Below the pieces are notes generated by a model, which ran no database searches, was not told the origin of the DNA, and worked only from the letters and a program-made list of their open reading frames with translations. A stretch of 64,000 bases of DNA from Sinomonas sp. ASV486. Lineage in GTDB: Bacteria > Actinomycetota > Actinomycetes > Actinomycetales > Micrococcaceae. The translations under genes and the position numbers were made by a program. Shown in pieces: positions 2,206-60,510 of this stretch; within the stretch, counting starts at the first letter, position 1; each line of letters opens with the position of its first letter. The DNA is taken from the NCBI RefSeq assembly GCF_030908215.1, contig NZ_JAVFJK010000004.1:1-64000 (forward strand). Direction: 5' to 3'.

Positions 2206-2320
2206 TATCGGATGTCCCACTTCCGGGCCCAGAGGTCCACCGGGCCAGCCCTTCGCCCTTGACTCGTGATTGTGATGAGCCTTACAGTTGCCGAGAACCT
2301 CGGACATCCCACATCCGATA
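2206..2320. promoter_or_regulatory. sat/nan promoter and probable NanR operator pair
   Basis: The 10-mer TATCGGATGT at 2206-2215 recurs in perfect inverted form (ACATCCGATA) at 2311-2320. Between them lies a promoter-like pair, TTGACT (2259-2264) and TACAGT (2283-2288), with an 18-bp spacer. This puts the start point near 2295, so the second half-site would lie just downstream of it. The arrangement fits repression by the divergent GntR regulator; the binding is inferred. Confidence 0.55.
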
Positions 2321-2405
2321 AGTGCTTTCCTGAGGGCACTCCGGACTCGGTCCACGAGGCCACGCACCCGGATCCACAGAGCCATCAACACGAACGGTGA
2401 GGTAC

Positions 2406-42850: not shown

Positions 42851-43821
42851 GGCGTTCCCCCATCGCTTGGCTGCGGCTTGGTCGTTCGGTCGGTCAGGTG
42901 CAGGAAGGCATCCTCGAGCGTCGCCTCGGTGACCGTCAGGTCCGCAACGCTCCAGCCCTCCGTGAAGAGCCTGCGCAGGAGTGCCTCCGGGCTGTTGCAG
43001 CGCACGACGGCGGCGCGCGCCTTCCCCGGCAACGCTGAAGTGGGCGGCGGGTCGCCGCCGTCGAACTCGGCGTGGATGACTCCCGCGGTCGTCGACAGGA
43101 CGTCGAGCGGTGCGTCGGTCGTGAGGGCCACCCGGCGGCCGGCCACGAGGCGCTTGGCGGCCTCGGGCGTGCTGTCCTGGATGACGCGGCCGCTGTCCAG
43201 GAGGATGAGGCGCTGGGCAAACTCATCGGCCTCGGAGAGGTTGTGCGTCGAGAAGAGGATCGTCTTGCCAAGGCCGGCGAAGCCCTGCACCTGCGTCCAG
43301 AATTCGCGCCGCGCGGCGACGTCGAGAGAGGCTGTCGGTTCGTCGAGGTACATGAGGTCGGGGTCCCCGACGACTGCCATGGCGAACGAGAGCCGCTGCC
43401 GCAGACCGCCAGAGAGCTCGTTGGTCTTCTTGCGCAGGTGTTCCGTGAGGCCGGCGCGCTCGAGGGCCTCGGCCACAGGAATCCCCACCGGATAGTAGCT
43501 CGAGACCAGGGTGACGATCTCCCTGACGGTGAGGCCATCCGGCGCTCCGGTGTCCTGGAGCATGGCGCCCACCCGGGACTTGACTGCTCTCGAGGACGGC
43601 GATGCACCGAACACTTCGATCGTGCCGGCCGTCGGGGTCCTCATGCCCAGCAGGAGCTCGATCAGGGTGGTCTTTCCGGCGCCGTTCGGACCGAGAACGG
43701 CGGCGACCTCGCCGGGCGCGATCATGAGTGAGATGCCGTCGAGGGCGAACTTGTCGCCGTAGCGCTTGGTGAGTGATGAGATGGCGATGGCTGGCGGGCC
43801 GCCGCTGTGCGTTTCCCCCAT
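42847..43821 (-). CDS. ABC-2-type exporter ATPase
   Basis: A 324-residue ABC ATPase. Walker A is GPNGAGKTT, the signature is LSGGLRQRL, Walker B is LMYLDEPTASLD and the switch is FSTHN. A C-terminal region of about 90 residues ends in a domain common to DrrA/CcmA-like exporters (LEDAFLHLTDR). ATG at 43821 is chosen because the domain starts there; a TTG 33 codons upstream is unlikely. It is divergent to the ECF sigma gene of the alkylation operon. Confidence 0.84.
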   Translation of the reverse strand: MGETHSGGPPAIAISSLTKRYGDKFALDGISLMIAPGEVAAVLGPNGAGKTTLIELLLGMRTPTAGTIEVFGASPSSRAVKSRVGAMLQDTGAPDGLTVREIVTLVSSYYPVGIPVAEALERAGLTEHLRKKTNELSGGLRQRLSFAMAVVGDPDLMYLDEPTASLDVAARREFWTQVQGFAGLGKTILFSTHNLSEADEFAQRLILLDSGRVIQDSTPEAAKRLVAGRRVALTTDAPLDVLSTTAGVIHAEFDGGDPPPTSALPGKARAAVVRCNSPEALLRRLFTEGWSVADLTVTEATLEDAFLHLTDRTTKPQPSDGGTP

Positions 43822-43960
43822 GGCCGAGACCCTAGCAGCGGGCACCGACGCTCCAGTAGGGCCCAAGGTTGGGCACCTTCGGCGCCGTCCACCGGTGCGT
43901 CGGTGGAAAGATAGTCGCAATACACCCCGACCTCACACTTCCGGCCCCTGCAGCGTCTAC

Positions 43961-44473
43961 ATGGTGATGGACACGAAACAGCCCTTCGAAAAGCTCGTCG
44001 AGCTCCACGGCGCCGCGGTGCTGCGCGTCTGCCGCGCAGTCGTCGGCCCGCTTGACGCCGACGACGTCTGGCAGGAGACCTTCATCTCCGCACTGCGGGC
44101 CTACACCGAGCTACCGGCAGACGCGAACATCGAGGCGTGGCTCGTGACCATCGCTCACCGGCGCTCCCTGGACTCCGTCCGGGCCTCGGCTCGGCGCGCC
44201 GTTCCGATCGAGTCAGTCCCGGACCGCGAATCGCCTCTGGGGATTCCGGACCCGCCCGGTGACGGTGTCTGGAACCACGTCGCCCGGCTGCCCGACAAGC
44301 AGCGGCGGGTCATCGCCTACCGCTACCTGGCCGATCTTCCCTTCACCGAGATCGCCGCAATCGTTGGCGGCACGCCTGCCGCGGCCCGCCGTTCCGCGGC
44401 GGACGGCATCAAGAAGCTCCGCATCCTCACCTCGGCAGATCTGCCCGAAGGAGACAGTCATGAACAGCACTGA
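43961..44473 (+). CDS. ECF sigma factor heading the alkylation-repair operon
   Basis: A 170-residue sigma-70 family factor. Region 2 is DADDVWQETFISALRAY with IEAWLVTIAHRRSLD, and region 4 is LPDKQRRVIAYRYLADLPFTEIAAIVGG with a helix-turn-helix that ends in an alanine/arginine-rich recognition helix. ATG 43967 is an alternative start that fits a leaderless transcript. Its stop lies inside ogt (14-bp overlap), and no anti-sigma gene is present. The four genes after it all encode alkylation-damage repair enzymes, so this factor probably directs its own repair operon. Confidence 0.83.
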   Translation: MVMDTKQPFEKLVELHGAAVLRVCRAVVGPLDADDVWQETFISALRAYTELPADANIEAWLVTIAHRRSLDSVRASARRAVPIESVPDRESPLGIPDPPGDGVWNHVARLPDKQRRVIAYRYLADLPFTEIAAIVGGTPAAARRSAADGIKKLRILTSADLPEGDSHEQH

Positions 44474-45155
44474 CACGAACAACCACGCGCCGACGGGCAC
44501 CGCTGAGACCGTGCCGCCTGACCAGACGGCGTCAGTGGACGGGCCGGGCCCGGTCGACCTTGCCTTCCCTCCGTACCTCACGGTCATCGAGCCGGGCACG
44601 CTTGAGCGTCTGCGTGGTTCCCTTGCTGCTGAGGCAAGCCGCGAGGGCCTCGTGGACGTGGCGTACCGCATCGTCGATTCCCCGGTGGGCCGGCTCCTCG
44701 TCGCCGCGACAGACCGCGGAATCGTCCGCGTCGCGTACGAGCGCGAAGGTCTCGACGCGGTGCTGCAATCACTCTCGGACAAGCTCAGTCCCCGCATCCT
44801 TGAAGCACCCGCACGCCTTGGATCCGCGGCGCGCGAGATCGAGGAGTACTTCTCCGGCAAGCGCATGCGCTTCGACCTCCCCCTCGACCTGCGGCTTTCA
44901 GCCGGGTTCCGCCGCACGGTCCTTGCCCACCTGGGCGATATCCCGTTCGGGCGCACCGAAAGCTACACCGAGGTGGCGCGCGCAGTGGGCAACCCCAAAG
45001 CGGTGCGTGCGGTGGGTACGGCGTGCGCCACCAATCCCCTGCCCGTCGTGGTGCCCTGCCACCGGGTCCTACGCTCCGATGGCAGTCTGGGCGGGTACAT
45101 CGGCGGCCTTGAGGCAAAGGCAACTCTGCTGGCGCTAGAGGCGGCGGCAGCGTGA
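44460..45155 (+). CDS. ogt: O6-alkylguanine-DNA alkyltransferase with N-terminal extension
   Basis: A 231-residue suicide methyltransferase. The acceptor cysteine is Cys200 in VVVPCHRVL, with the preceding helix RAVGTACATNPL and the end SLGGYIGGLEAK. Typical Ogt proteins have about 170 residues. Here an extra N-terminal stretch of about 60 residues (Thr/Pro-rich, then LAFPPYLTVIEPGTLERLRGSL, 20 or so conserved-looking positions) precedes the usual start at VAYRIVDSPVGRL. It overlaps the sigma gene by 14 bp and alkB by four. The extension could contact the sigma factor; that is speculation based on the arrangement. Confidence 0.88.
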   Translation: MNSTDTNNHAPTGTAETVPPDQTASVDGPGPVDLAFPPYLTVIEPGTLERLRGSLAAEASREGLVDVAYRIVDSPVGRLLVAATDRGIVRVAYEREGLDAVLQSLSDKLSPRILEAPARLGSAAREIEEYFSGKRMRFDLPLDLRLSAGFRRTVLAHLGDIPFGRTESYTEVARAVGNPKAVRAVGTACATNPLPVVVPCHRVLRSDGSLGGYIGGLEAKATLLALEAAAA

Positions 45156-45844
45156 CAACGGCTCTGTTCGGCGACGAGCTCCTCGAGCGGCCCCGCCGGG
45201 AGCTGGCCCCCGGCGCAGTCCACGTGCCCGGCTGGCTGAGCCTTACTCAGCAGGCATGGATGGCTGACCGCTTCCGCGAATGGTCGGCCGGGCCTGTCCC
45301 CCTCCGGGCGGCGAGCGTGCGCGGCCATGAAATGTCCGTCAAGACCGTCTGCCTCGGCTGGCACTGGCAGCCGTATCGCTACACGCGCGAGGCAATCGAC
45401 GTGAACGGAGTCCGCGTCTCGGCCTTACCGGAGTGGCTCGTGCGAGTGGGGCGCCTCGCGGTGGCCGAGGCCTATGGGAACGACCCGGAGGCCGCGGGCT
45501 ATGCGCCGGATACCGCACTCGTGAACTACTACGACGATGCTGCCAAGATGGGCATGCACCAGGACAAGGATGAAATCTCGCTCGAGCCCGTCGTCTCCCT
45601 GTCTATCGGCAACTCGTGCCTGTTCCGCTTCGGCAACACCGAGACCCGCACCAGGCCCTATGAGGACCTGACTCTCGCCTCCGGCGATCTGTTCGTTTTC
45701 GGTGGGCCGTCCCGCCTCGCCTACCACGGAGTCATGAAGACCTACCCCTGCAGTGCACCCGCCGGATGCGGCATGGGGGCCGGGCGCATCAACATCACCC
45801 TGAGAGTCACCGGACTGGAGCAGAAGGAGAGCACCCATGAGTGA
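45152..45844 (+). CDS. alkB: AlkB-type 2-oxoglutarate/Fe(II) dioxygenase
   Basis: A 230-residue oxidative demethylase for 1-methyladenine and 3-methylcytosine in DNA. The iron ligands are His136 and Asp138 (GMHQDKDE) and the histidine in LAYHGVMK. The 2-oxoglutarate site is RINITLR (N-x-T-x-R), and LVNYYDDAAKMG precedes the metal site. GTG at 45152 overlaps the ogt stop as GTGA. Length and motif spacing match bacterial AlkB. Confidence 0.92.
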   Translation: MTTALFGDELLERPRRELAPGAVHVPGWLSLTQQAWMADRFREWSAGPVPLRAASVRGHEMSVKTVCLGWHWQPYRYTREAIDVNGVRVSALPEWLVRVGRLAVAEAYGNDPEAAGYAPDTALVNYYDDAAKMGMHQDKDEISLEPVVSLSIGNSCLFRFGNTETRTRPYEDLTLASGDLFVFGGPSRLAYHGVMKTYPCSAPAGCGMGAGRINITLRVTGLEQKESTHE

Positions 45845-46442
45845 GGCAGCACTCGTCACGGGCGAGGACGGCCTCGCGAGGCCGTCCTGGGCCAGCGTGG
45901 ACACCCTCATGCGCGAGTACTACGACACCGAGTGGGGCATGCCCGTGACGGACGAGCAGGGTCTCTACGAACGCATCTCCCTCGAGGGCTTCCAGGCGGG
46001 CCTGTCCTGGGCCACGATCCTTCGGAAGCGGCCGGCATTCCGCGCAGCGTTCGCGGACTTCGATCCGGAGGCTGTGGCCCTCTTCACGCAGGACGACGTC
46101 GAGCGGCTCATGCTCGACGCGGGCATCGTGCGGAACCGCGCCAAGATCAATGCGGCCATCACCAACGCCAAGGCCACCCTCGCTCTGCGCGAGGAGGGCG
46201 GCCTCGTGGAGTTCGTCTGGTCGTTCCAGCCCGCCGAAACACCGGCTCCGCGCTCATTCGCCGACATCCCCTCCTCATCCCCTGAGTCGGTGACCCTCTC
46301 GAAGGCCCTCAGGAAGAAAGGATTCGCTTTCGTCGGACCGACCACCATGTTCGCCCTCATGGAGGCCATCGGCATCATCGACACCCACCTCGTGGGCAGC
46401 CACCGGCGCGGCAGCTCGGGCATCTGGACGGAAGCCAGCTGA
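45837..46442 (+). CDS. tag: DNA-3-methyladenine glycosylase I
   Basis: A 201-residue Tag-family HhH glycosylase that excises 3-methyladenine. Characteristic blocks are EYYDTEWGMPVTDEQGLYERI in outline, SLEGFQAGLSWATILRKRPAFR and KKGFAFVGPTTMFALMEAIG. Tag zinc ligands at the far ends are not obvious, as in many actinobacterial members. It overlaps alkB by eight bases and is followed at two bases by alkA. Confidence 0.9.
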   Translation: MSEAALVTGEDGLARPSWASVDTLMREYYDTEWGMPVTDEQGLYERISLEGFQAGLSWATILRKRPAFRAAFADFDPEAVALFTQDDVERLMLDAGIVRNRAKINAAITNAKATLALREEGGLVEFVWSFQPAETPAPRSFADIPSSSPESVTLSKALRKKGFAFVGPTTMFALMEAIGIIDTHLVGSHRRGSSGIWTEAS

Positions 46443-46444
46443 CG

Positions 46445-47362
46445 GTGGCCGGGCCCAGCGAAGCAAGACCCCCGGTCATCGAGCGCTGGGAAGCGGAGTC
46501 AAGACCCATACACCTCGAAGCCAACGGGGGCCTTGAGCCCGCCGCGATGCTCGCGAGCCTGGCCGCACACTCGATTCCGGGCGCCGAGCGCACGCAAGCA
46601 GGCGCGGGCATCCACGAGCGGCTCGTCTGCACGACCCAGGGCCCTGTGGCCGCGTCGGTCAGACTGCGTGCGTCGGGCGTGGACGTAACCCTGGAGGGTC
46701 CCCGGGAAGCCGAAGGAGAAGCCCTGGCTGCCGTCCGAACGTGGCTCGACCTCGACGCGGATCTGGACGACGTGCGGGCCGCGCTGGTCGGCGACCCCGA
46801 TCTCCGGCCCCTCGTCCTGGCCCGCCCGGGCCTGCGGGTCATCGGCACAACGAACGTGTTCCAGACAGTCGTCACGACAGTCCTGGGGCAGCAGGTATCG
46901 CTCGCGGCCGGTCGGACCTTCGCTGGCAGGCTCGTGGCCTCCTACGGCACGCCCGGACCAGGCGGCCTCCTGCTCTTCCCGCGCCCCGCGCACCTCGCCG
47001 GCACAGATCCCGGGGAGCTACGGGCCGCCGTCGGGCTCACGGCGGCGAGGGCGCGGACGGTGCATGCGGTGGCGCTGGCCTTCGCCGATCGCCGCGGGGC
47101 CGAGAACACCACGGAGAACGATGCCGCAACGCCTCACCTCACCAGGGACGAGTTGCTCGCGCTGCCCGGAATCGGACCGTGGACGGTCGACTACCTCGAG
47201 GTTCGCACCGGCAACCCTGACGCGTTCGCGCCGGGCGATCTGGTGCTCCGACGCGCACTCGGGGGGATATCGGCCGCGCAGGCGGCGGCCCGCAGCGAGG
47301 TCTGGCGCCCGTTCCGCGCGTATGCCCTGGTCCATCTGTGGACGGCCGCCGCGTACCTCTGA
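46445..47362 (+). CDS. alkA: DNA-3-methyladenine glycosylase II
   Basis: A 305-residue HhH-GPD glycosylase with broad alkyl-base specificity. An N-terminal AlkA-type beta domain (residues about 10-110) precedes the helical core (TTNVFQTVVTTVLGQQVS). The hairpin is LLALPGIGPWTVDYLEVR, followed by the catalytic aspartate in AFAPGDLVLRRAL. GTG at 46445 lies two bases after tag, so the operon is tightly packed. It ends 34 bp before the promoter of the tRNA gene. Confidence 0.9.
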   Translation: MAGPSEARPPVIERWEAESRPIHLEANGGLEPAAMLASLAAHSIPGAERTQAGAGIHERLVCTTQGPVAASVRLRASGVDVTLEGPREAEGEALAAVRTWLDLDADLDDVRAALVGDPDLRPLVLARPGLRVIGTTNVFQTVVTTVLGQQVSLAAGRTFAGRLVASYGTPGPGGLLLFPRPAHLAGTDPGELRAAVGLTAARARTVHAVALAFADRRGAENTTENDAATPHLTRDELLALPGIGPWTVDYLEVRTGNPDAFAPGDLVLRRALGGISAAQAAARSEVWRPFRAYALVHLWTAAAYL

Positions 47363-47395
47363 CCCACCCGACACGGGCGCCTCAGGATCCTCAGT

Positions 47396-47424
47396 TTGGC
47401 GCAGAAGCCACCGCCCGGTAGAGT
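47396..47424 (+). promoter_or_regulatory. tRNA-Ser promoter
   Basis: TTGGCG (47396-47401) and TAGAGT (47419-47424) have a 17-bp spacer, placing the start about five bases before the mature tRNA. Confidence 0.65.
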
Positions 47425-47435
47425 TGATGCCTGCT

Positions 47436-47520
47436 GGTGGTGTGTCCGAGCGGCCGAAGGTGCATCACTCGAAATGATGTTTGGGGCAACCCAACGGGGG
47501 TTCAAATCCCTCCACCACCG
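47436..47520 (+). tRNA. tRNA-Ser (anticodon CGA)
   Basis: An 85-nt tRNA with a long variable arm. The acceptor stem GGTGGTG pairs with CACCACC, the anticodon loop CTCGAAA gives CGA (reads UCG), the T-loop is GGTTCAAATC and the discriminator is G. The 3' CCA is not encoded (CCC follows). Confidence 0.93.
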
Positions 47521-47529
47521 CCCAGCACG

Positions 47530-47571
47530 AAGGCCCCTGCGGCCCCGGTATCCCGGGGAAACAGGGGCCTT
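47530..47571 (+). terminator. Terminator after tRNA-Ser
   Basis: The arm AAGGCCCCTG pairs with CAGGGGCCTT around an inner CCCCGG/CCCGGGG hairpin, followed by TCGTCATCTC. It lies ten bases past the tRNA. Confidence 0.75.
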
Positions 47572-47641
47572 CGTCATCTCCCCGACCGCCAGCTCTCCAG
47601 CGTATGATGCAGGCCACACGAGGTCGAAGAGGAGAGCGTCA

Positions 47642-48058
47642 ATGGGTGGGAAATCGGAGAACGGGAAGCCGCTGGCCGTGAAATGGCTCGACGAGCCGGA
47701 AGAGCATGACTACCCCGCCGCCGCGGCCTACCTTGAGCTCCTTGCGAGGCCCAAGAATGTCAAAACCCTCGTCGAGGCGCTCCGCAAGGCACCGGTCACG
47801 CACCAGAAGGCCAAGGACATCCTCCGTGCCTCCGGTCTCGCGCTGCTCGAGGAAACGAACGCCCACGTCCGGTCCGACCTCGTCAAGGTCCACAAGGGCG
47901 ACAAGCTCTCCCCCATCCTGCTCGTCCGCGGAGACCTCTCCTCTGGGAAGGTGCTGCAGGTTGCCGACGGCTACCACCGGGTGTGTGCGAGCTACCACGT
48001 GGACGAGAACACGGACATCCCCGTGAAGATCGCGGACTTCCCCGCCCGGAGCGCGTGA
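47642..48058 (+). CDS. Small protein with a ParB/Srx-like motif
   Basis: A 138-residue soluble protein. The C-terminal half contains LSPILLVRGDLSSGKVLQVADG followed by YHRVCASYHV, resembling the ParB/sulfiredoxin motif (D-G-x-H-R), and the N-terminal half is helical (PKNVKTLVEALRKAPVTHQKAKDILRA in outline). Proteins of this type are common in actinobacteria, but a function is not established. It is followed at 12 bp by the antiporter gene and may share its transcript. Confidence 0.65.
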   Translation: MGGKSENGKPLAVKWLDEPEEHDYPAAAAYLELLARPKNVKTLVEALRKAPVTHQKAKDILRASGLALLEETNAHVRSDLVKVHKGDKLSPILLVRGDLSSGKVLQVADGYHRVCASYHVDENTDIPVKIADFPARSA

Positions 48059-57771: not shown

Positions 57772-60510
57772 TCAGCGGGGCCCGGCCGCCCGCCCGTTCA
57801 CGGGCGGGCGGCGGAACCGCGGCCTGCCAGTGTGGACAAGGAAAGGCGCGGCGCGGCGGCGGACCCGCGCGTGGCCGTGGTGCAGGCCCACGGCCTTCGC
57901 GGCCGCGAACTCCTTAGCCCGGGTCGGCGCCTCGCGGGCCGCCCGGGCGTCCTCGGCCCTGTAGTAAAAGTGCTTGGCCGTCTCCACGAGCACGAGGTAC
58001 AGGAGCACCATGCCCACGAGCGCCAGGAAGAAGTCCGCCGGGAGCGGCCGGAATCCCACGACGTCGCCGATGGGTGTGTACGGCAGGATGGCGCCGATCG
58101 CCACCACGGTCAGGACGCTCGCGGTGAGCGCGGCCGAGGCCCGGCTGCGCATGAAGGGGATGCGCCGCGTGCGGATCACGAAGACGATAAGGGTCTGGGT
58201 CGCGAGCGACTCGACGAACCAGCCCGCCCGGAACTCCTCGGGCGCGGCCTGGAACACCCACAGCATGAGGCCGAACGTAGCGAAGTCGAACAGCGATGAG
58301 ATCGGGCCGAAGGCGATCATGAAGCGCCGGATCCCGGCGATGTCCCAATGCGCGGGCTTGCGCAGCTGCTCGCGATCCACCTCGTCGGTCGGGATGGCGA
58401 GCTGGCTCGAGTCGTAGAGCAGATTGTTGAGCAGGATCTGACCGGGCAGCATGGGCAGGAAGCTCAGGAAGGCGCTCGCTGTGGCCGCAGAGAACATGTT
58501 GCCGAAGTTGCTGCTCGTGCCCATGAGCAGGTACTTGATCGTGTTGGCGAAGATGCGCCGGCCGCCCATGACGCCGTCGGCGAGGACGTCGAGGTCCTTC
58601 TCGAGGAGCACGACGTCGGCCGCATCCTTCGCGACGTCCGTCGCCGAATCGACGGAAATGCCGACGTCGGCGCGGTTGAGCGCGAGGGCGTCGTTGACGC
58701 CGTCGCCGAGGAACCCGACGGAGTGCGTGCGCCGCAGGACCGTCACGATGCGGGCCTTCTGCTCCGGGGAGACTCGAGCGAAGATCCGCGCGCCGGGCGC
58801 GGCGGCGGCGAGGGCGTCGTCGTCCATCGCCTCGATCTCGGTGCCGGTCAGGGTGGTTCCGGGGTCCATCTTGAGCACAGAGACGACGTGCTCGGCCACG
58901 AGCGCGTTGTCTCCCGTGGCGACCTTGAGGTCCACCGCGAGGCTGGCGAGCCTCGCGAGCGACGCCCGGGCGTCCGCCTTGGGCCTGTCGAAGAAGCTCA
59001 GGAAGCCGTCGAGCGTGAGAGGCGCGGCGGCGTCGTGCGTCCCGTCCGCGGAGGCCGGCCCGCTCGCAACGGCGACCACGCGTGCACCCCGACGAAACAG
59101 CTCGTCAAGGGCGCCGCGGTCCTCGTCGGACACGTTCGTGCAGGCCGTGATGACCGCCTCGGGCGCGCCCTTGAGGATGCGCACGGGCCCGATCGCCGAG
59201 GCTACGACGGTCTCCATGGTGCGTGTCTCGTGATCGAAGGGGCGGATGGACCGGCGTGTGCGACCGGTCAGCCCGGCGGGGAGATCGGGGAAGGCCTCCC
59301 AGAGGGCCTCGTCGACCGGGTTCTGGCCGGCGCCTGTCGCGCCGGGGACTGAGGGATCGACCTCGCAGCACAGCAGAGCGAGCTCGGTGAGCCGGCGCAC
59401 CGCGTCGTCCGAGGGCACCCCTGCGGGCGCCCCCGCCGCGGGAACGGCCTCCTCGAAGCCGATCCGGCCTTCGGTGAGCGTCCCCGTCTTGTCCGTGATG
59501 AGGACGTCGAGGTTGCCGAGGTCCTCGATGGCGAGGAGCCGCTTGACCAGGACGCCGCGCTGTGCAAGGAGCCGCGAGCCGGCGGCGAGGGACGTGCTCA
59601 CGACGGCGGGCAGCAGCTGCGGTGTGATGCCCACCGCAATCGCGAGGGAGAACAGGACCGAGTCGAGGAAGGGCCGCTGCAGGAGCAGGTTGATGACGAG
59701 GATGCCGACCGTGAGGAAGACTCCGACCCACAGGAGCATGAGCGAGAACTCCTTGAGTCCCCGCTGGAATCCCGTCTCCGGCACGCCCTGGGCGAGCCCC
59801 GCGGCGATCCTGCCGAACTCGGTCTCGTGGCCCGTCGCAGTGACGACCGCGCGGGCCGAGCCCGCATGGATCACGGTGCCCATGAGGAGGCAGTCGGTCA
59901 GGTCGGCGAGATCCGGTCGGGCGCCACCAGGGCCCTCGGGAACAGGGTCCGCGGACTTCTCGACGGCGGCGGACTCGCCCGTGAGGACGCCCTCGTCCGC
60001 TTCGAGGCCTATGGCTTCGAGCACGCGGGCATCGGCGGGGACGATGTTGCCGAGGCCGATCCTGATGATGTCCCCTGCAACGAGCTCGCGCACGGGGAGC
60101 TGGCGCTCTGCACCGTCGCGAACCACCACGACGGTGTGGGAGATCCGCTCGTGGAGGTCCGCCGCGGTCTTCTCGGCGCGGAACTCGTTGGCGAATCCGA
60201 GCAGCGCACTGCCGAGGAGGATCGCGATGATGATGGTCGCGTTGAGCTGGTCCCCTGTTGCGAACGACATGGCCGCGGCGGCCACCAGAAGCGCCTGGAG
60301 CGGGCTCGCGAACTGCCGCACGAGCACGTGGAACCAGCTCACACGATGGGCCTCAAGCACGTTCGCGCCCTGCGCGAGGCGCCGCGCGGCCTCCTCCTCG
60401 GTCAGGCCGCGCACCGAGGTCCCCAGCGCTGCCAGGACTCCCTGCGCCGGCATGGCCGCGGCCTCCGCGACCGCCAGCTGAAGTCTCTCTGAGACCGTCT
60501 CTGTGCTCAC
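57772..60510 (-). CDS. mgtA: MgtA/MgtB-type magnesium-translocating P-type ATPase
   Basis: A 912-residue P-type ATPase. The phosphorylation site is VLITDKTGTLTEG, with TGES in the actuator domain and GDGVNDALAL in the P-domain. Membrane segments are at about 60-95, 250-305 and 690-870. The family imports Mg2+. The usual C-terminus is reached near KHFYYRAEDARAAR, after which about 45 basic residues continue to the stop. This tail is encoded partly by a perfect 12-bp hairpin (57785-57812) and may be a read-through extension. It begins with ATPase-like N-terminal sequence GVLAALGTSVRGLTEEEAARRL. Confidence 0.88.
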   Translation of the reverse strand: MSTETVSERLQLAVAEAAAMPAQGVLAALGTSVRGLTEEEAARRLAQGANVLEAHRVSWFHVLVRQFASPLQALLVAAAAMSFATGDQLNATIIIAILLGSALLGFANEFRAEKTAADLHERISHTVVVVRDGAERQLPVRELVAGDIIRIGLGNIVPADARVLEAIGLEADEGVLTGESAAVEKSADPVPEGPGGARPDLADLTDCLLMGTVIHAGSARAVVTATGHETEFGRIAAGLAQGVPETGFQRGLKEFSLMLLWVGVFLTVGILVINLLLQRPFLDSVLFSLAIAVGITPQLLPAVVSTSLAAGSRLLAQRGVLVKRLLAIEDLGNLDVLITDKTGTLTEGRIGFEEAVPAAGAPAGVPSDDAVRRLTELALLCCEVDPSVPGATGAGQNPVDEALWEAFPDLPAGLTGRTRRSIRPFDHETRTMETVVASAIGPVRILKGAPEAVITACTNVSDEDRGALDELFRRGARVVAVASGPASADGTHDAAAPLTLDGFLSFFDRPKADARASLARLASLAVDLKVATGDNALVAEHVVSVLKMDPGTTLTGTEIEAMDDDALAAAAPGARIFARVSPEQKARIVTVLRRTHSVGFLGDGVNDALALNRADVGISVDSATDVAKDAADVVLLEKDLDVLADGVMGGRRIFANTIKYLLMGTSSNFGNMFSAATASAFLSFLPMLPGQILLNNLLYDSSQLAIPTDEVDREQLRKPAHWDIAGIRRFMIAFGPISSLFDFATFGLMLWVFQAAPEEFRAGWFVESLATQTLIVFVIRTRRIPFMRSRASAALTASVLTVVAIGAILPYTPIGDVVGFRPLPADFFLALVGMVLLYLVLVETAKHFYYRAEDARAAREAPTRAKEFAAAKAVGLHHGHARVRRRAAPFLVHTGRPRFRRPPVNGRAAGPR
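57785..57812 (-). terminator. Perfect GC hairpin at the mgtA 3' end
   Basis: The 12-bp stem GCCGCCCGCCCG with loop TTCA lies in the last codons of mgtA, between convergent nei and mgtA. It has terminator shape but no T-run. Confidence 0.5.

What the first reader, a model, noticed from the sequence alone, without database searches (positions are those of the whole stretch)
43961..47362. ECF sigma factor heading a five-gene alkylation-damage repair operon
The sequence shows a sigma factor gene overlapping ogt, then alkB, tag and alkA, with overlaps or gaps of only a few bases. Together these enzymes cover O6-alkylguanine, 1-methyladenine/3-methylcytosine and 3-methyladenine repair. The classical adaptive response uses the Ada activator; here no Ada regulatory domain and no anti-sigma gene is visible, so the sigma factor may itself be the regulator. 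I do not know of a named system with this order, but related gene pairs may already be annotated in other actinobacteria.
Basis: partly seen in the sequence, partly recalled or inferred. Interest (0 to 1): 0.78.

Follow-up and report, generated by a model that had tools for sequence, protein, structure and literature searches.

The report
Sigma factor paired with alkylation-repair enzyme
A soil bacterium, probably a Sinomonas, carries a gene cluster for repairing chemically methylated DNA that seems to switch itself on: its sigma factor gene is almost always followed, in other genomes too, by a repair enzyme that may also be its damage sensor, which could be a second way, besides the textbook Ada protein, to run this response.

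Summary
The operon is real: ECF sigma factor, O6-alkylguanine-DNA alkyltransferase (Ogt), AlkB, Tag and AlkA, overlapping or 2 bases apart. The window is very probably Sinomonas; its genome shows no Ada zinc domain and no second Ogt.

Comparison went further. (1) This sigma type is followed by an Ogt in 75 of 75 named genomes with room downstream; alkB, tag and alkA were found in 34, 28 and 9. (2) That Ogt carries an N-terminal helix: 80 of 83 held-out sigma-linked Ogts, 0 of 54 Ogts upstream of the sigma gene. (3) A private promoter, TCACR-N16-CGTY, heads the operon in 151 of 165 loci, and in 41 of 44 of a later, mostly new sample (0.2 expected by shuffling). Its fuller form occurs once in the own genome at one mismatch or fewer: window 43931-43960. 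(4) Five divergent second ogt genes carry their own copy.

So the sigma factor very probably switches on its own repair operon, and the linked Ogt is the best candidate sensor, most likely an anti-sigma factor released when alkylated. That step is inferred; coevolution was inconclusive. The sigma-Ogt association is already catalogued (ECF122, mechanism unknown). Promoter, helix and operon structure were in no paper I found.

The parts
43931..43960 (+). ECF-type promoter: -35 CCTCACA (43931-43937), -10 CGTCTAC (43954-43960)
   Evidence: Strict TCACR-N16-CGTY; conserved at the head of this operon across the phylum; sole match at <=1 mismatch of CCTCACRTT-N14-CGTYTWC in the own genome.
43967..44473 (+). 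ECF sigma factor (in-frame upstream starts at 43961 and 43964); ECF122-like
   Evidence: Pfam Sigma70_r2 and r4; orthologues lead an ogt. Start set by promoter position (inference).
44460..45155 (+). ogt-H: O6-alkylguanine-DNA alkyltransferase with N-terminal extension; acceptor Cys200 at 45057-45059
   Evidence: PF01035, PF02870; solved relatives are alkyltransferases.
44598..44642 (+). codons of the N-terminal helix (residues 47-61) typical of sigma-linked Ogts
   Evidence: AlphaFold2 model, mean pLDDT 92.0; helix profile test.
45152..45844 (+). alkB, 2-oxoglutarate/Fe(II) DNA dealkylase
   Evidence: PF13532 1.7e-45
45837..46442 (+). tag, 3-methyladenine DNA glycosylase I
   Evidence: PF03352 5.6e-66
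46445..47362 (+). alkA, DNA-3-methyladenine glycosylase II
   Evidence: PF06029 2.1e-16, PF00730 7.1e-9

Best explanation
A self-activating, Ada-independent alkylation-damage regulon. The ECF sigma factor directs RNA polymerase to one private promoter type (CCTCACRTT-N14-CGTYTAC) in front of its own operon, so that sigma, alkyltransferase and whatever further repair genes a lineage has added are made together. Without damage the loop is held shut by the co-translated Ogt-H, which binds the sigma factor through its N-terminal helix. When Ogt-H takes an alkyl group from O6-alkylguanine onto Cys200, an irreversible step, it changes shape or is degraded and frees the sigma factor; the loop fires, and fresh, unalkylated Ogt-H closes it once damage is gone. 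Shown by comparison: operon, near-invariant pairing, helix nearly confined to linked Ogts, private promoter. Inferred: that the sigma factor reads this promoter, that Ogt-H binds it, that binding is inhibitory, and that alkylation releases it. Confidence in autoregulation by the sigma factor is about 0.9; in Ogt-H being its regulator about 0.55 (the figure given below); in the anti-sigma sign of that regulation about 0.4.
For: Pairing: relatives, 29 of 30 loci. Phylum sample: 29 of 29 loci at E<=1.6e-42, then 28 of the next 39 places; the 11 without lie at E 1.0e-23 to 2.3e-21. Named genomes: 75 of 75 with >3.5 kb downstream. Class sample: 44 of 45, the exception at a contig end. Cargo varies: alkB 34, tag 28, alkA 9 of 75. 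A start codon overlapping the sigma stop by 4 nt (ATGA, GTGA, TTGA) in 71 of 88, 71 of 79 and 36 of 44 loci of three overlapping sets. Helix: held-out linked Ogts 80 of 83 above 8 bits (median 40), upstream Ogts 0 of 54, unlinked 3 of 25, two of them cut by contig ends. A second Ogt lies just upstream in 41 of 75, so Ogt-H is kept where such repair is already present. Acceptor Cys in 164 of 167 linked Ogts, the other three truncated or out of frame. Promoter: within 120 nt in 113 of 165 against 3.65 expected, spacer exactly 16 in 107 of 113; 151 of 165 in wider windows that include the upstream ogt (no shuffle control); 41 of 44 in the class sample, 0.2 expected, 3 on the reverse strand. In 38 relatives the fuller pattern has 24 matches, 18 at the operon head, 2 for the reversed control; the 15 sigma-free genomes have none. 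All five divergent second ogt genes seen have their own copy (L039, L259, L156, L140, L266). No sigma-70-like promoter in 43700-47700.
Against: No direct evidence of binding. Coupling analysis on 205 pairs (Neff 141) was inconclusive: mean of the top ten inter-protein scores 6.40 against 3.1-5.2 for six full shuffles but 3.6-7.1 for six clade-preserving swaps, and the top pairs sit largely at termini. The helix was not shown to resemble an anti-sigma domain. L182 keeps Ogt-H with helix although the sigma gene is largely deleted, and L016 has sigma and promoter without ogt. The motif was not found in 14 of 165 loci, 10 of them outside the class; in the relatives 5 of 23 sigma+ genomes lack it at <=1 mismatch and 6 of 24 matches lie elsewhere. 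With a looser pattern 27 sigma+ genomes gave 71 matches against 15 for the reversed control, mostly unread, so other targets are not excluded. Sigma+ genomes are only weakly depleted in Ada: 7 of 59 against 60 of 237 at E<=1e-20, Fisher p 0.036, not corrected for phylogeny; 10 of 59 against 84 of 237 if weak Ada matches are counted.
Confidence: 0.55

Rival explanations
1. Ogt-H is a positive partner: only alkylated Ogt-H binds the sigma factor or its holoenzyme and activates it, as methylated Ada activates RNA polymerase; there is no sequestration.
For: Same pairing and helix evidence. Some kinship to Ada: 119.3 bits with the Ada model against 72.7 with the PRK10286 model, both below their cut-offs; the Ada C-terminal domain 1sfe is first by Foldseek E-value, 41% identity. 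Methylated Ada activates transcription (PMC4437013 passages).
Against: Kinship is mixed: by TM-score and by profile search of PDB sequences M. tuberculosis Ogt is closer than 1sfe. Position after the sigma gene with a 4-nt overlap fits a stoichiometric inhibitor; an autoactivating sigma factor with an acidic region 2.2 (DADD) needs a brake. Neither point is decisive.
Confidence: 0.18
2. Ogt-H is only cargo: the sigma factor is controlled otherwise (proteolysis, low basal level with positive feedback, an unlinked regulator), and the pair is kept because O6-alkylguanine repair is the core task.
For: The sigma factor sits with repair genes and no anti-sigma family was found among the five proteins. 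Coupling analysis gave no clear interface. L182 keeps Ogt-H without an intact sigma gene.
Against: The helix is nearly confined to sigma-linked Ogts, and cargo genes come and go while this one does not, even where a second Ogt lies in the same operon.
Confidence: 0.3
3. The sigma factor itself senses alkylation through the conserved cysteine of region 2.1 (Cys24 counted from ATG 43961).
For: Cys24 is invariant in the first 29 sequences.
Against: Replaced by L, A or V in 49 of 165 linked sigma factors.
Confidence: 0.03
4. The operon is constitutive and the sigma gene a chance neighbour.
For: No expression data were available.
Against: Pairing across classes and a private promoter found mainly at this operon.
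Confidence: 0.02

Closest known systems
ECF122 group of ECF sigma factors (Casas-Pastor 2021 classification, seen only through the review PMC8999054)
   Same: ECF sigma factor without anti-sigma factor, 6-O-methylguanine DNA methyltransferase conserved in its neighbourhood, model member in Cellulomonas sp. Root930. A Cellulomonas locus here (L173, strain Root485) has the same sigma-Ogt pair.
   Different: The review gives mechanism unknown. The promoter, the Ogt helix, the variable alkB/tag/alkA/PF09859 cargo and the second Ogt are added here. The group's own model could not be run.
Ada adaptive response (E. coli ada-alkB, alkA, aidB; PMC4437013 passages)
   Same: Co-regulates an O6-alkylguanine alkyltransferase, AlkB and AlkA, with positive feedback.
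   Different: No Ada zinc domain in this genome; the transcription switch is a sigma factor with its own promoter type; the supposed sensor would take alkyl groups from O6-alkylguanine, whereas Ada's switch is its N-terminal cysteine (recalled).
ECF sigma/anti-sigma pairs with short helical anti-sigma factors (class II CnrY, class III RsbN; PMC7406223 passages)
   Same: Two-gene unit with a helical segment in the second protein; autoregulated promoter (the last recalled).
   Different: The second protein is a repair enzyme with one main N-terminal helix; binding not shown.
Mycobacterium tuberculosis Ogt (4bhb) and other free-standing Ogts
   Same: Alkyltransferase fold and PCHR acceptor site.
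   Different: By sequence the profile aligns with single-enzyme chains only from position 32 or later, after the helix; two tagged fusion chains start earlier, at 8 and 24.

Membership tests
ECF sigma factor | Sigma regions 2 and 4 only | tested here: met
   PF04542, PF04545/PF08281 above cut-off, 170 aa.
ECF122 | 6-O-methylguanine DNA methyltransferase conserved next to the sigma gene | tested here: met
   75 of 75 named loci with room.
ECF122 | No anti-sigma factor gene | tested here: inconclusive
   None among the five window proteins; neighbours of other loci were annotated only in part; Ogt-H may itself be one.
ECF122 | Match to the group's sequence model or to WP_057211282.1 | not testable with these tools
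   The classification paper is not held and the protein was not at hand; the link rests on partner gene and genus Cellulomonas.
Ada adaptive response | Ada protein with N-terminal zinc/phosphotriester-sensing domain | tested here: not met
   PF02805 absent from G000 at E<=1e-8; 20 of 24 candidates scored.
Ada adaptive response | Induction by methylating agents | not testable with these tools
   Needs expression data.
O6-alkylguanine-DNA alkyltransferase | Acceptor cysteine in PCHR | tested here: met
   PCHR in the window and in 162 of 167 linked Ogts; two of the other five keep the Cys (ACHR, GCHR), three are truncated or out of frame.
anti-sigma factor | Binds and inhibits its sigma factor | not testable with these tools
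   Coupling analysis inconclusive.
ECF autoregulation | Group-specific promoter upstream of the sigma operon | tested here: met
   That the sigma factor uses it is inferred.

The most novel reading that the evidence does not exclude
A suicide DNA-repair enzyme is the anti-sigma factor: Ogt-H holds the ECF sigma factor by its N-terminal helix, and the irreversible transfer of one alkyl group from DNA to its cysteine is the event that frees the sigma factor. Sensor, repair enzyme and brake would be one protein, and an Ada-free adaptive response would be widespread in Actinomycetota.
Probability: 0.38. Interest if true: 0.85.

Novelty: new variant of a known kind. Interest (0 to 1): 0.64.

Why it matters
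The alkylation response is taught through Ada, yet 202 of the 296 genomes sampled across this phylum gave no Ada zinc-domain match at E<=1e-8. This module offers some of them a different switch (59 of the 296 carry the linked pair by the count), and gives ECF122, listed in print with unknown mechanism, a concrete model: a defined promoter, a defined partner and a defined part of that partner (the helix) to delete. If Ogt-H is the brake, one alkylation event would count directly as one freed sigma factor, a simple damage counter also useful as a sensor for alkylating chemicals.

Tried and rejected
Sigma cysteine as sensor: looked invariant in 29 sequences, fell to 116 of 165 with more distant ones. 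Sigma-Ogt coevolution: 205 pairs, Neff 141, inconclusive. Wider regulon: at two mismatches the own genome has five further sites against two for the reversed control; two of the five were looked at by eye and no repair gene was recognised. In 27 other sigma+ genomes a looser pattern gave 71 matches against 15 for the control; only those near sigma loci were read. Ada exclusion: weak only. A natural sigma-Ogt fusion was looked for in 86 loci and not found. Ogt-H-like genes outside sigma loci were checked in 20 fetched places. Literature searches. Of PMC8999054 I read one part of one section and found passages; of PMC4437013, PMC7406223 and PMC8103513 found passages only (for the last); the other listed papers were seen as search listings. 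That promoter, helix and operon are not in print means: not found by these nine searches in open-licence papers.

Limits of the counts. The sets overlap: Sinomonas genomes probably occur both among L002-L015 and L102-L107, and L232, L234, L243, L251 of the class sample (4 of 45) were fetched before. Seven of the 52 class genomes with the sigma factor had been fetched earlier and are not in the 45. Loci in one genus are not independent, and the helix test's held-out half contains close relatives of its training half. Eight of the 54 upstream Ogts and one of the 25 others got no helix score and count as below 8 bits. Start codons were chosen by script. alkB, tag and alkA were sought with the window's own proteins within the DNA held, so those counts are lower bounds. 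Gene finding was crude. In one search sequences outside a length range were dropped (162 kept) and L268 and L273 were left out. Sigma and Ada lists were typed; they count two weakly scoring linked pairs (G136, G284) as sigma+ and only Ada matches at E<=1e-20.
Full report
What is there. The window carries five genes on the + strand: ECF sigma factor, ogt, alkB, tag and alkA, all above Pfam cut-offs. Overlaps are 14, 4 and 8 nt and the last gap is 2 nt. A tRNA-Ser follows at 47435-47524. The genome (4.28 Mb, 19 contigs) has one match to this Ogt and no Ada zinc domain at E<=1e-8. The best sigma hits among named genomes are six Sinomonas, first Sinomonas atrocyanea at 85%, so the window is very probably Sinomonas.

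How far it is spread. Among 58 relatives 32 have a sigma match at E<=1e-20; 29 of the 30 returned loci have ogt directly downstream. In an even sample of 296 genomes of the phylum, the matches returned as L033-L061 (E<=1.6e-42) have it in 29 of 29. Of the next 39 places fetched (L062-L100) 28 have it; the 11 without lie at E 1.0e-23 to 2.3e-21. Two more linked pairs score weaker still (L184, L194). In 394 genomes of the class 52 have the sigma factor at E<=1e-28; of 45 of these loci 44 have ogt and the other ends at the contig end. In the named set the tool kept 80 loci; 79 have ogt downstream and the other (L166) ends with its contig. 75 have more than 3.5 kb downstream. They include Sinomonas, Arthrobacter, Paenarthrobacter, Streptomyces, Mycobacterium, Amycolatopsis, Rhodococcus, Microbacterium, Leifsonia, Clavibacter, Cellulomonas, Kocuria and Tsukamurella. 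One exception is L016, a sigma gene with promoter but no ogt in reach, in a genome of 450 contigs at 92% completeness.

What varies. Behind sigma-ogt come alkB in 34, tag in 28 and alkA in 9 of 75; a second Ogt stands just upstream of the sigma gene in 41 of 75. The order ogt-alkB-tag-alkA of the window occurs in 8 of 75. In 11 named loci a further gene follows ogt; the three members scanned match PF09859, an oxygenase acting on damaged DNA by its Pfam description. The core is sigma plus Ogt; the rest is interchangeable repair cargo.

The promoter. Upstream of the sigma start the same two boxes recur: CCTCAC(A/G)TT and CGT(C/T)TAC. TCACR and CGTY, 15 to 22 nt apart, lie within 120 nt of the chosen start in 113 of 165 loci, 3.65 expected from dinucleotide shuffles; the spacer is exactly 16 in 107 of the 113. 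Many of the rest have the motif in front of the upstream ogt, where the operon then begins; in these wider windows 151 of 165 have the strict form TCACR-N16-CGTY, without a shuffle control. In narrow windows on three sets the strict form is found in 68 of 87 (0.1 expected, 1 on the reverse strand), 67 of 79 (0.6; 3) and, in the class sample, 41 of 44 (0.2; 3). With the fuller pattern at <=1 mismatch the own genome has one match, the window operon. In 38 relatives there are 24 matches: 18 at operon heads, 6 elsewhere, and 2 for the reversed control. Of 23 genomes with the sigma factor 18 have a match; of 15 without it none has. All five divergently placed second ogt genes seen carry their own copy: L039, L259, L156, L140, L266. 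In five genomes of one genus (L258, L260, L261, L262, L266) a copy also stands after ogt, ahead of what looks like a short-chain dehydrogenase gene; a sixth (L256) does not show it. No sigma-70-like promoter was found in 43700-47700. The promoter position implies a leaderless sigma mRNA starting near 43967 (inference).

The Ogt partner. Sigma-linked Ogts have an N-terminal extension. A profile of it made from every second linked locus scores 80 of 83 held-out linked Ogts above 8 bits, none of 54 Ogts upstream of the sigma gene, and 3 of 25 others, two of which are cut by contig ends; the third is L182. AlphaFold2 gives helix 47-61 followed by the usual fold, mean pLDDT 92.0. Solved single-enzyme alkyltransferases align by sequence only after it. 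By Foldseek E-value the Ada C-terminal domain comes first (41% identity), by TM-score M. tuberculosis Ogt does, as it does in the sequence search. 164 of 167 keep the acceptor cysteine and the other three are truncated or out of frame. The ogt start overlaps the sigma stop by 4 nt in 71 of 88, 71 of 79 and 36 of 44 loci of three overlapping sets, and in another way in most of the rest. In L182 the sigma gene appears reduced to a short remnant (read by eye), the -35 box is one base off while the -10 box fits, and Ogt-H remains; a genome of the same genus has the full set (L245). That fits a promoter serving only this sigma factor, but it is one case and one base.

Mechanism. Autoregulation by the sigma factor is the natural reading of a private promoter that comes and goes with it. 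A self-activating sigma factor needs a brake or a gate. The one protein present almost every time is Ogt-H, co-translated, with an added helix, and kept even where a second Ogt is at hand. I therefore take Ogt-H as the regulator and, as the likelier sign, as an anti-sigma factor released by alkylation. The co-activator model is the main alternative of sign; the cargo model remains possible. A test for residue coupling between the two proteins did not settle it, and the sigma cysteine idea failed.

What is known. A review names ECF122 as a group without anti-sigma factor, with 6-O-methylguanine DNA methyltransferases among its conserved neighbours, mechanism unknown, model member in Cellulomonas sp. 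Root930 (PMC8999054). Our Cellulomonas locus L173 is another strain with the same pair. The term ECF122 occurs in no other paper of the library. I found no experimental study of this module, within open-licence papers only. The classical response uses methylated Ada as activator (PMC4437013).

Verdict.

Noticed in passing
L222 (G007, same genus), site at 1501: A second exact copy of the fuller promoter pattern about 8.8 kb downstream of the operon, ahead of a small ORF and a protein that looks like an Lhr-type helicase (by eye, not searched).
   Followed up: partly
L258, L260, L262, L266 (about 100 nt), L261: Promoter copy ahead of what looks like a short-chain dehydrogenase gene following ogt; five genomes of one genus.
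   Followed up: partly
L117, L128, L130, L135, L141, L181 and five more: Gene after ogt matching PF09859 'Oxygenase-NA' in the three members scanned, a further possible repair member of the operon.
   Followed up: partly
L182 (G193) around 2209-2354, minus strand: Sigma gene apparently mostly deleted, -35 box one base off; Ogt-H retained.
   Followed up: partly
L273 (G624): Sigma match split in two pieces, a frame break or sequencing error; ogt and promoter present. Described only.
   Followed up: no
L083-L086, L090, L184, L194: Deep-branching sigma-Ogt pairs without the standard promoter; they may use a different one.
   Followed up: no
G251 contig C21, about 59407-59562: A weak Ada zinc-domain match (E 2.9e-9) directly behind this genome's sigma-Ogt-H pair.
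   Followed up: no
G129, G510, G592: A near-identical loose promoter match (TTCACGAAAGCCG...TTTTCGTCTAC) recurs, twice each in G129 and G510; possibly a repeated element or a shared target.
   Followed up: no
window 47435-47524: tRNA-Ser (cga) directly after the operon.
   Followed up: no
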